From: Glandiceps talaboti
Lineage: Eukaryota > Hemichordata > Enteropneusta > Spengelidae
Assembly (NCBI RefSeq): GCF_964340395.1
Contig: NC_135554.1
Span: 28,280,630-28,344,629 of the forward strand
Reading direction: 5' to 3'
DNA: 64,000 nucleotides
The notes under the pieces were generated by a model that had not been told where the DNA came from, searched no databases, and saw only the letters and a program-made list of their open reading frames with translations. Positions 24,801 through 47,000 of the stretch are shown here, in pieces. Position 1 is the first letter of the stretch; each line of letters opens with the position of its first letter. The translations under genes and the position numbers were made by a program.

Positions 24801-27800
24801 TGTTTACAAACTGTCAAATTATAATTTGGGTCAAAAGTTAATTGCAAACTTGAATCTCAGCCATTTAAAAGTTGTTATTGTTCATTGTTTTTTGTATAAA
24901 AACCATTAAGTAAAATACCTTCACTGGTAGTTTCATTAAAAAGTTGCTGTAAACATGTCTAAAGAATTCCTGCATTATATCCGTTCTATTGCAGCACTGT
25001 TGATAATCAGGTCCATGTTGATAACAGCAGCAGCATGCATTTCTCTTGTTGTCAATGCGCTTCTGGTCAATTGTCAGACATGCGGTGAAGAACGTGACAC
25101 AGAAGAAGAAGAGGAAAAAGATACCAATGGCACAGTAAACACAGAATGAACGGAGGGCAGGTAGGATGGTTGTAGCACCAATACCAAAGGCCACAAAATC
25201 TGTGATGGAGGTTACTGTTATTGATACACCCTGTGAAAAAGAGACAGAAAAGTAAAAATGTTGGAATTTTTGAAATTAAGGAAAAGAATAATTTCTCCAA
25301 AGTAGTTTTCTAGAATTCCAATCAAGCAAAATAACAAGCCCTGATGGCTAGATAATGTGGAAACATTCTTGAATTCCAGTCTGAATTACCGCTGCAGTGT
25401 TAACTTGCATATTTATAGACTCAACTTTGCATGTTTAATGACTCATCTTGCATGTTTGACTCAACTTGTATATTTAATGACTCGATTTGCATATTTGACT
25501 TAATTTTCATATTTAATGACTCGACTTGCATATTTAATGACTTGCATATTTATCAATCAACTTGCATACATTGACTCAATTTGCATAATTATTCAATTTG
25601 CCCTCTCTACCAGTTATTGTATTTATTGTTCAACACTGGTCAAATTCATTTCTTCCTGATAAAGATGGAAGTCACTGCTAGTTTGTGATTCGATCTATGC
25701 ATCTATCTACATGCTAGATTTTTATTGTTGTTGCTCTTTTGCTAGTCTTTCTCATTTTGTAATGTTCAGACCGCTGAGACATGTTTGTGTAGTGGTCTTT
25801 AAACAATAAATTATTATTATTATTATTATTATTATTATTATTATTATTATTATTATTATTAAATGTATTATGCTGTCACACATGCTGATGTGTATAATAT
25901 GCTGCATGTCTCAAGTAATTGATTTCACAATTTCACTTATTTCCCAACTATCTATTGATACATAACACTGATATCCAAAACTGAACACAATTTGCTGAAA
26001 ATGATTACTTTATGAGTAAAACTATTCCTGCAATAGAAACTTTAGGGTACTGTAACAGATGAAATGCATAATTAGAATGCAGACTCTCATAACAATAATT
26101 TAGAGATATCATATTGGCTAAGTACAGAGCAGTGTGCCCGTTAATGAAAGACAACATTTGTTGTTATTGGTCAAAATGATAAATACTAGGTTTTCATGTG
26201 AGTCATCACACAGTGAGAGATAGGGAACTTTAAAGTTTGGTGGGTAACAAGAGATTATGTGTGACTCATCAGTGGTACATCAAATTGGTTTAGAGTGTAC
26301 ATTGGCACAGAAAGCTAGTTGACCAATACTCACTGCATGTCTAAGTGCCTCCCCTACTCTCTCATGCAGCTCATATTTCCTTTTCTGTTGTGATAGGTTA
26401 TTCCATGCTTGTACAATAACAAACATGTCATCCACACCAATACCTATATATACATGAGACAATGTGATAGGTTATTCCATTCTTGTACAATAACAAACAT
26501 GTCATCCACACCAATACCTATATATACAAATGTATGATGAGACAATGTGATAGTTAGGTTATTCCATGCTTGTACAATAACAAACATGTCATCCACACCA
26601 ATACCTATATATATATGAGACAATGTGATAGTTAGGTTATTCTATACTTGTACAGTAACAAACATGTCATCCACACCAATACCTATATATATATGAGACA
26701 ATGTGATAGTTAGGATATTCTATACTTGTACAGTAACAAACATGTCATCCACACCAATACTTATATGCGACGTGTAAGTAAAATTCGAGTTAGATGATAT
26801 TTTCTTCATAGAATACAATATAATATTATTTGATTTCAATAAATGATCACTTCTGTTCAAATCTTGATGAAATACATGTACCAACACTTACCGATCCATC
26901 GATACTATTATTCAAATGCAAAGGCTATTCACCAAGTGGCAAATAGTAGCTTTAAAGCCACTTTTCACCCAGCCACTCGGCCAATAACAGGTGAATAGCA
27001 GCTATTCTGACACTATTCACTCAGCAGCTGGATTCATTACTGTTGATTTTGATCAGTTGTGTTGACTGACAAAGCTTGCGATAATAACTGATATGACAAC
27101 TCTTAATTAAAGTCCACATTGATCAACTTAAAAAGGTGACAACAGGGAGTGCCAAGTTGAACTGCATGTGTTACTTTGAGTTTCAAGTGAGATTTCAGGA
27201 AAGTATAACATTTTTGCATGATGGTTTTCACATTATTTCACATGTCAATATCAAGGTCACAACAACTCCCATACAAGACACTATAGCTCGATGAATATAG
27301 TGAGTGACACCATACTCACACCATTTATGTATGATAAGATAAGGTAAAATTTTATTGAGTCCTTCAAAGGGAAATGTAAATGCCTGCCACAAAACTGATA
27401 TAAAAATAAACAATGGTTGAACTTGGGTGTATAGAAAAGATTGCTACGACAAAAAGTATTGGGCCCTTGTTTTAGTTAGGGTGCTACACAGTAGTAATGT
27501 ATATTGACCAGAAACTCAAGACTAGGGTTCGATGGGATAAATGTAGTCTTGTTGTGTTGTTGATTCATTAACACCCAAAAGTGCAACAGAGTTGTCAAAT
27601 TAAGGTGTGTAACCTATCTTTAATCATCCTGGAATTTGAAAGTCAATACTGGGATTCATAATATATCTTCAAAACTATAACTTACTGTGAGAAAATATTT
27701 TAATGCATCACATAGAAGATAATAAAAGATAAAAACTTACCAAGCAGTAGAAATGGTAAGACGGTATGGACAGGACCATAGAAAAAACCACAGGCTGAGG

Positions 27801-44000: not shown

Positions 44001-47000
44001 TTAGAATGTGTGTGCAAATGAACACAATAATTCATCTAGTTTTATTGTCTTAAAATTATGAGCATATTATTACATATTTCTTTATGAGTTAATGTGTATA
44101 TTGTTGTGAGAGATTGATTAGTTGTAAAGTAGTGGTAGCTGATGAACACCTGACAATCACTGATGTCTGCCCAATACTCAGGTAGTATGTGATAATTCAA
44201 TTTTCTTTACTTGGAACACATCATCCTATGACTAATGGAGGGTATGTTAACTTTATATTCAGATGATAATGCAGACGTTAAGATTTCCTTTTTTAAGGGC
44301 AGTTAAAGTCAGTAAAATCTATGTGTGGTTTCTTATGTATTTTACAGAAGTTCTCCAACAAAATGATTGTATTAGTAGCAATTGAAATGTATCCATTGTT
44401 TTCAGCTTTCTCCATTCTGTTGCCATGGTTCATAAACCTTGTAGCGTAACCTGGGTATATTGATTGATTAAAACATCAGTTACTGTAAGAACACACCATG
44501 AATGCATAACTTGCAACTAGTGTAACTCAAGTTATTATGAGTCATACATGTCATAACTAGCATAGAGCTTGAAGGTAGTCAAAGAGCCAGATTTGGCTGA
44601 CTCATAATTAACACATGATTGGTTTGGGCCGAGCTGCCTCTTTGTGAAGTCTGAAGTAGATTTGAACCAACCATTGTTGTATCTCAAATATGTGTTTTTC
44701 TGAACGTATTTTTTTGTGTGTACAAACAAATAACCCCCAAATCGATATGTATCAAAATTTTTCCAATTTGCCTTGTAGCAAGGATTGTATGCCATCATGG
44801 ATCAGTGTCAGGGTTAAGAATTTGTACAATGTACAGGGATTTCAATGATTAGTTCAAAGAAAGTATGCATCATAAAAATGTGTTATATGAATACATTAAG
44901 TTAGCTATTAAAGTATCTGTGAAGGTATTCTGATTATAACCTACATTTAAATTATTGTGGACATCAACAAAGACATACTTTTTTCCTGACATATTTTCTA
45001 TGATGACAGCTGATATATGTGTCTGTCTGTCTGTCTGTCTGTCTGTCTGTCTGTCATTTTGTAGGGGTAAACCACTGATGCTTATTATTCATAAGTCCTG
45101 GTGTGGAGCATGTAAAGGTAGGTACTTTTTGTGTGAACTGTAAAATACTGTAAACCTTGAAACTTTCGCTAAAGACTTATTTTTGCTAATTTTGTTGGAA
45201 AACATTTTAAAAAATTGAAAATAAGTAGTGGGTGAAATGCCTTCTTGTATATATACACAAGTGCACCAGGCTTAGAAATTTGTAAACATTAGTCTTTGGG
45301 AACTAGTTGACGATTGTAAAATCACAAAAAATTTTAGTGGTGAAAATGACTAGGTTTATAGTACTGTACATGATGTTGTTCAGCCCTAACCTACATGTAT
45401 TATATGTACAGGCTAGTGTGTGTGCTTGTGTAATGTCAGATGGAAATACAGTAACTTACCCTACAGGGATTTTGAATACACTGTCAGAAAAGGAATTGTT
45501 TTTAGAGAAAATTATGTTGCATAGGGAAATCAGAAAGTAAGGCTTAGCAGATGTATGCCAGGGGTATGAATTGTACAATTGTACAGATAGAGAAAAATGA
45601 TGTTATAGTACCAGCACCTTTTCAGTTGTGTGTAAATCAGAAATATGAAATCCACTCTAAATTAGAACTTTACCAGATATTGGAGGGGTCAAACTATGCA
45701 ATTTTGGTTGGTACAACATTTACTACATCATAAATCTTTATGACACCCCCTCTGACTTGTGAAAATGCATTTATTACTGTGAGCCAGTTCATTGTATAAT
45801 AAAAGTTAACTCATATGGTTATATGGATATCTATGCTTGTTATGAAAGAACTTTTTATGTTTTCAACATATTTATGTAGTAGTTCCTACTGGACATTACA
45901 TTTGAACATTACCTAATGACATAAATACTATATACTCATTATTATGACTACTTTTGATACTTTTCGATTTTCAAATTATTTTATCATCATTGGAATGAAT
46001 GCAGTCTAACTTTATGGTCTTCAGTGGTTACTTATCCCAACTACTTAAATGCTGAATCTAACTGCATACAGTTCTTATGAGCAATTCATAATTGACACAA
46101 AATCACATTGTGGCAGTATTCTTTGGGTAACCAAAATACAATCTTTACCTTCAGTCTTAAAGTAAGTTCACTTGAGAATGTGATAACGTCGTCACATTTA
46201 TATTGAAACTCCAATAGCATTAAACTACTGCTGGAATTTGTTTGAATGGAACATTGTGCTAGTGAAAGCCATTTCACTATACAGTGAAGAGAAATCTTAG
46301 AAAACATGGCCACATGTATAGTAATTCTAGACTAATTAATAACCAGACTATCCCACGTACATGTATGTTTATACAAATCTATTTCCTTTGCAGCTTTGAA
46401 GCCCAAGTTTGCCGAGTCAACAGAAATTAAAGACATGAGTGAAAAGTTTGTCATGGTGAATGTAGAGGTGAGTGGTTGTCATGGTGAATGTAGGGGTGAG
46501 TAGTTGTCATGGTGGTTGTAGAAGTGAGTAGCTGTCATGGTGAATGTAGGGGTGAGTAGTTCATGATACTGAATGGGCTGTAGGGATGATAGGTACTTCT
46601 AAGGTTGGCTGTGATTTTGTGATACTCAGTAATATGATTCAGTTAGTTTCCATTTTGAAGTTAGCCGACTTGATACGTTGTACCGTACTGATGAACTCTT
46701 ACACTGTTTATCAAAAACTTTGTAAATTATTACATTGAAATGTCTCATCATGCAGTTATTTTAAAATCAGAATTATAAAATAAATTCTTAATATATAAGA
46801 CAAGATTAAATAAATGTTAAGATTTCGTTAAGACCACTCACTTTAAAATTTTAGAAATCTTTCCAAAATAAAAATTTTTCGAGGTAAAGTTACTGACAGT
46901 GAAGAATATATTTTTTTATGCAAAGTAGAACAAAGATGTGTTATTTTGTAGTTTAATATCAAAGAACCGAAACCTGCATTGTGCATTTCAGGACAATGAA

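What the first reader, a model, noticed from the sequence alone, without database searches (positions are those of the whole stretch)
26334..46563. Shared pattern: minisatellites seeded at exon-intron junctions in two neighbouring genes
Exon 2 donor, exon 9 acceptor and exon 5 acceptor of the Patched-like gene and exon 4 donor of TXNDC12 all have adjacent copies that include the splice site. Four cases among 24 exons seems more than chance. Possible causes are replication or repair slippage at junctions, or a genome-wide habit of this lineage that multiplies splice sites.
Basis: inference. Interest (0 to 1): 0.75.

Follow-up and report, generated by a model that had tools for sequence, protein, structure and literature searches.

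The report
Splice-site minisatellites ("mirages") in two genes
In two neighbouring animal genes, four exon edges have been copied in tandem into the adjoining intron together with their splice signal, as already described in amphioxus as "mirages"; the copies are real, but here they are not clearly more frequent than the general richness in tandem repeats would give.

Summary
The four border repeats are real. I rebuilt both genes: an 18-exon Patched/sterol-sensing protein (- strand) and a 6-exon TXNDC12-like gene (+ strand), 24 exons and 44 splice borders. Exactly 4 of 44 borders have a strong local copy: exon 2 donor (9 units, exon unit included), exon 5 acceptor (2 copies, not a minisatellite), exon 9 acceptor (5) and TXNDC12 exon 4 donor (4, plus one decayed).

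"More than chance" depends on the null. By founding duplication: 4 of 11 families span a border against 0.86 expected (P 0.007; 0.04 with founders twice as long). That is post hoc, one window, weak.

The arrangement matches amphioxus "mirages" (PMC3087553, PMC3902484, passages). All 16 extra sites tested would give an early stop if used, so they look like tolerated relics. At exon 2 the intron's first 31 bases copy the exon's last 32, and the working donor lies in that copy of coding sequence. Species unknown; the genome-wide test could not be run.

The parts
18431..40000 (-). Patched-like (sterol-sensing domain) gene, 18 coding exons, 964 codons
   Evidence: continuous frame; sterol-sensing 3e-45 and Patched SSD 2.4e-39 on the joined protein; Patched homolog 1 chains 1.4e-31
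40973..51258 (+). TXNDC12-like gene, 6 coding exons, ends in IDEL
   Evidence: thioredoxin domain-containing protein 12 (2k8v) 8e-60 over residues 22-155
38143..38389 (-). Patched-like exon 2; its last 32 bases are the exonic unit of the array
37890..38175 (-). exon 2 donor array: exonic unit plus eight intronic units of 29-33 bases, eight extra GT sites
   Evidence: TRF 32 bp x 8.9
29149..29296 (-). Patched-like exon 5
29335..29393 (-). single diverged upstream copy of the exon 5 acceptor and exon start
   Evidence: 81% over 62 bases; acceptor at 29381, score 7.8 against 12.0
26334..26443 (-). Patched-like exon 9 (GIGVDDMF motif)
26394..26766 (-). exon 9 acceptor array: working copy plus four upstream copies, about 78 bp
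   Evidence: TRF 78 bp x 4.7
46394..46467 (+). TXNDC12-like exon 4
46448..46561 (+). TXNDC12 exon 4 donor array: working copy plus three extra 28-bp copies (a fifth, decayed, follows)
   Evidence: TRF 28 bp x 4.1
32761..33398 (.). example of a purely intronic minisatellite in the same gene (31 bp x 20.6), part of the background used in the tests
   Evidence: others at 20084-20232, 25426-25542, 29928-30227, 30319-30563, 37468-37626, 41948-42322

Best explanation
These are mirage-type border duplications: short tandem duplications whose founding segment included, or ended at, an exon border, after which three of the four grew and turned over like the other minisatellites of this repeat-rich stretch. 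They persist because a border is a tolerant place: when an exon end and its splice signal are copied in tandem, the exon-side copy stays in use and all extra copies fall inside the intron, so the protein is unchanged. At exon 2 the intron's first 31 bases are a copy of the exon's last 32, so today's donor (GTAAGT) lies in a copy of codons for Gly-Asn-Val (GGTAATGTT) that is one base shorter; the intron begins with a copy of coding sequence. Shown: the copies, their splice letters, the exon-side place of the working site in the gene model, and an early stop for each of 16 extra positions tested. Inferred: that the extra sites are rarely used, that the arrays are neutral relics, and the order of events at exon 2.
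For: Copies and splice letters; splice dinucleotide kept in 15 of 17 extra copies (decayed fifth TXNDC12 copy counted). In 4 of 4 cases the extra copies lie on the intron side. Early stop on use of each of 16 extra positions: codon 121 for 8 of 8 at exon 2, 196 for the one at exon 5, 356-396 for 4 of 4 at exon 9 (one of these has lost its AG), normal stop 964; codon 102 for 3 of 3 in TXNDC12, normal 164. The working site outscores its copies at exon 5 (12.0 vs 7.8) and TXNDC12 exon 4 (11.7 vs 9.4, 7.5, 9.4), and 7 of 8 at exon 2 with one tie. The gene region is rich in such repeats: 8.1% of bases, 11 non-coding duplication families. Position tests show no excess. Same arrangement reported in amphioxus globin, Adh, TnC and PGBD5 genes (passages).
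Against: The founder-event null leaves an excess (4 of 11 families vs 0.86 expected, P 0.007; 0.04 with doubled founder length) that tolerance alone does not explain, since introns are at least as tolerant. At exon 9 one extra acceptor scores higher than the working one (6.8 vs 5.6), so site choice there is not explained by this score. No RNA: use of the extra sites is untested, and the working sites themselves come from frame and homology. The score matrices rest on 20 acceptors and 20 donors of these same two genes. That the exon 2 coding unit is the source rests on its frame and on a weak alignment with Patched homolog 1 (domain 1, 14.3 bits, i-Evalue 0.1).
Confidence: 0.72

Rival explanations
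1. Borders are duplication hot spots: splice motifs recurring near a border (GGTAA, GGTGA, AG|GT) supply the short homology for replication slippage, so borders are duplicated more often than other intron positions.
For: Founder-event null: 4 of 11 families against 0.86, P 0.007; 3 of 7 arrays with three or more copies against 0.40, P 0.005. Donor-like GGTAATG inside exon 2 and GGTGAATG inside TXNDC12 exon 4.
Against: No excess by position or by whole footprint (2.0-2.8 expected, P 0.12-0.29). Post hoc, one window. Founding breakpoints can no longer be read.
Confidence: 0.15
2. The extra sites work: decoy or poison splice sites that lower or regulate the output of the two genes through early stops and mRNA decay.
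For: All 16 extra positions tested lead to an early stop; 15 of 17 extra copies keep the splice dinucleotide; one decoy outscores the working acceptor at exon 9.
Against: Early stops are what unselected frames give; most copies score below the working site; the retained dinucleotides are roughly what copy divergence would leave (my estimate, not a call); no RNA.
Confidence: 0.07
3. Intron birth by tandem duplication of coding sequence (Rogers model) is under way.
For: The exon 2 donor lies in a copy of coding sequence.
Against: The exon 3 side is unrelated to the array (score 11 against a null mean of 13.7, P 0.95); donor and acceptor neighbourhoods of intron 2 share nothing (score 10; 22 introns range 8-23, no null computed).
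Confidence: 0.04
4. Assembly artefact: misassembled or collapsed repeats.
For: Minisatellites are hard to assemble.
Against: Copies differ from each other in ordered, shared variants (exon 2 unit types; exon 9 copies), as in real arrays.
Confidence: 0.02

Closest known systems
[quoted passage not shown]
   Same: Unit spans the boundary; donor and acceptor sides both occur; many but not all copies keep AG/GT; units of about 10-160 bp (passages of PMC3087553, and PMC3902484)
   Different: Species here unknown; no RNA or population data; other genes; one of four is a diverged two-copy pair
Internal tandem repeats at exon-intron boundaries of human genes in segmental duplications
   Same: Units of about 30 bp repeated about four times, some at exon-intron boundaries (passages of PMC2812944)
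   Different: There in recent paralogues, with novel introns and transcript support; here no new intron is seen
Intron changes by tandem genomic duplication (Rogers model; potato RdRp; Drosophila novel intron positions)
   Same: Duplication that crosses a boundary, or a copy of coding sequence that becomes intron (passages of PMC4974935, and PMC2891723)
   Different: No new intron here; the intron 2 acceptor is not a copy

Membership tests
Mirage (boundary minisatellite) | tandem repeat that includes an exon-intron boundary | tested here: met
   4 of 44 borders; at exon 2 the exon-side unit is wholly exonic and ends at the donor
Mirage (boundary minisatellite) | minisatellite-like: several copies, units of about 10-160 bp | tested here: met
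   3 of 4 cases (28, 29-33 and about 78 bp); the exon 5 case has two copies only
Mirage (boundary minisatellite) | many but not all copies keep AG/GT | tested here: met
   15 of 17 extra copies
Mirage (boundary minisatellite) | regular splicing in spite of the copies | not testable with these tools
   no RNA data held
Mirage (boundary minisatellite) | length polymorphism or somatic instability | not testable with these tools
   one sequence only
Mirage (boundary minisatellite) | reported so far from cephalochordates | tested here: inconclusive
   GC 34.6% against about 41% recalled for amphioxus; a 21-base probe found nothing in genome and viral contigs, a 26-base probe nothing in viral contigs (these collections hold few or no animals); Rab3 piece does not discriminate
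Rogers-type intron gain | both ends of the intron lie in copies of one exonic AGGT segment | tested here: not met

The most novel reading that the evidence does not exclude
Exon borders are true duplication hot spots, in a lineage other than amphioxus, because splice motifs supply the short homology for slippage; the duplications feed a steady stream of spare splice sites from which intron ends move, as at exon 2, where the working donor sits in a copy of coding sequence.
Probability: 0.13. Interest if true: 0.72.

Novelty: new member of a known kind. Interest (0 to 1): 0.36.

Why it matters
If borders are duplicated more often than other intron positions, they would be a steady source of spare splice sites and a testable route by which intron ends move; these arrays are cases in which the copies can still be read. 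If not, they are a caution that repeat-rich introns give border arrays by chance, and that the choice of null (position or founding event) decides the answer.

Tried and rejected
Position null against founder null: they disagree and both are reported. BLAST self-comparison missed TXNDC12 exon 4 and was replaced by a diagonal scan. Recursive splicing at the AG|GT copies of exon 9: donor scores low (3.3 for the copies, 1.3 for the exon 8/9 junction). Microsatellites at acceptors: 2 of 22 against 0.69-0.89 expected, P 0.15-0.22, no excess. Full intron gain: not supported. A thirteenth exon that I looked for is not needed: exon label 13 is skipped and the frame is continuous with 18 exons. Further genes: Pfam scans of read-through frames covered, besides the - strand of 29801-38200 (nothing), the - strand of 1-18400 and 50002-60000 and the + strand of 1-9990 and 54002-64000; only the Ras family (with Roc) passed a cut-off. 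The other stretches were not scanned. Taxon: probes found nothing, left open.

Literature: eight searches. In them the word mirage in this sense turned up only in two amphioxus papers; boundary repeats or duplication-driven intron changes in human, potato and fly genes turned up too. Seen as passages only: PMC3087553, PMC3902484, PMC2891723, PMC2812944, PMC4974935, PMC7931591 (48, not relevant). The Adh3 paper of Canestro 2002 is not held (one search used a DOI that I recalled wrongly) and is known here only through papers that cite it.

Full report
WHAT WAS CHECKED. The window looks like animal DNA (both genes and a Rab3-like exon), 34.6% GC, rich in tandem repeats: minisatellites with units of 10 bases or more cover 7.3% of it. 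I rebuilt the two genes by reading frame, splice signals and homology. The Patched-like gene (- strand, 40000 to 18431) has 18 coding exons and a continuous frame of 964 codons; the TXNDC12-like gene (+ strand, 40973 to 51258) has 6. Homology supports joins: sterol-sensing domain 3e-45 and Patched SSD 2.4e-39 on the joined protein, Patched homolog 1 chains at 1.4e-31, thioredoxin domain-containing protein 12 at 8e-60 over residues 22-155. There is no transcript evidence.

THE FOUR CASES. A scan of the 40 bases round each border against 600 bases on either side gives four borders with scores of 52-75 and none of the other 40 above 25. Exon 2 donor: the last 32 bases of the exon are followed by units of 31, 33, 33, 33, 32, 32, 32 and 29 bases. 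Exon 5 acceptor: one copy 85 bases upstream, 81% over 62 bases. Exon 9 acceptor: four upstream copies with the codons of the GIGVDDMF motif, the farthest with its AG lost. TXNDC12 exon 4 donor: three 28-base copies and one decayed. In 4 of 4 the extra copies lie on the intron side.

IS IT MORE THAN CHANCE? By position, no: 3 of 44 borders lie in TRF arrays against 3.6 expected, circular-shift P 0.70; 4 of 44 have a strong local copy against 2.8-3.7 expected from intron positions, P 0.30-0.52 at thresholds 36-52, and 2 against 2.5, P 0.72, at threshold 60. But in such a null an intron array of n copies counts n times, while a border counts once. Counting founding events, the gene region holds 12 duplication families, one of them in coding sequence; 4 of the other 11 span a border. 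Placing 11 units of those lengths at random gives 0.86 on average, P 0.007; doubled lengths 1.40, P 0.040; 19 families with weak ones 1.06, P 0.017; the 7 arrays with at least three copies, 3 against 0.40, P 0.005; whole footprints 2.0-2.8, P 0.12-0.29. I set the unit lengths by hand. The test is post hoc, on a window noticed for this pattern. I read it as a hint.

HOW IT WORKS. If a border segment is duplicated in tandem, the exon-side site still gives the old protein and the rest becomes intron. Each of the 16 extra positions tested gives an early stop if used (one of them, at 26760, has lost its AG), so they should be mostly ignored; that is inference. The working site scores best at exon 5 and TXNDC12 exon 4, ties with one of eight copies at exon 2, and is below one of four copies at exon 9 (5.6 against 6.8). 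The splice dinucleotide survives in 15 of 17 extra copies, which by my rough estimate is about what their divergence would leave, so I see no sign of selection on them.

EXON 2 IN DETAIL. The exon unit GGTAATGTTCTAACG... encodes Gly-Asn-Val-Leu-Thr, which lines up with Ala-Asn-Val-Leu-Thr in Patched homolog 1, in a weak alignment (14.3 bits, i-Evalue 0.1). The intron's first unit reads GGTAAGTTCTAATG..., one base shorter, and its GTAAGT is the donor. So the working donor lies in a copy of coding sequence. The last unit also begins GGTAAGTTC, and the unit before it together with that GTAAGT is 37 of 38 identical to the exon unit with its donor, as if the ends of the array kept the founding pair and the middle units came later. 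That order is inference. Exon 3 is not similar to the array (P 0.95), so this is a change of donor, not the birth of an intron.

WHAT IS KNOWN. [quoted passage not shown] PMC3902484 adds PGBD5 and TnC. Passages of PMC2812944, PMC4974935 and PMC2891723 show boundary repeats or duplication-driven intron changes in human, potato and fly genes. The finding is a new member of that kind. Whether the species is a cephalochordate is open: GC is below the roughly 41% that I recall for amphioxus, and the probes found nothing, in collections that hold few or no animals.

VERDICT. Real, well formed, and mostly what a repeat-rich genome would give; an excess at borders is unproven. The exon 2 donor in a copy of coding sequence is the most instructive part.

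Noticed in passing
35200-35392: A perfect (CT)96 tract ends seven bases before Patched-like exon 3 (35193) and so serves as its pyrimidine tract; TXNDC12 exon 3 has (TGTC)9 (45020-45055) just before its acceptor. Two of 22 acceptors, no excess.
   Followed up: partly
61875-62360: A coding exon of a Rab3-like gene on the + strand (Ras family 4.6e-13); best PDB match is a Rab-3 chain (4rkf; Drosophila as I recall), nearly identical over 72 residues.
   Followed up: partly
12709-13387 and 29837-30732: A dispersed repeat, about 75-76% alike, present twice in the window, with tandem pieces at the second place.
   Followed up: no
33609-33701 and 34663-34755: Inverted pair of 93 bases, 93.5% alike, about 1 kb apart inside Patched-like intron 3; perhaps ends of a mobile element.
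   Followed up: no
50340-50411: tRNA-Cys (gca) gene inside the last TXNDC12 intron, same strand.
   Followed up: no
54682-55490: Minus-strand frames that look to me like remains of a LINE reverse transcriptase (by eye; Pfam listed nothing there up to E 0.1).
   Followed up: no
18437-18551: Weak 72-base tandem duplication in the acidic C-terminal coding end of the Patched-like gene, the only one of the 12 families of the gene region that lies in coding sequence.
   Followed up: no
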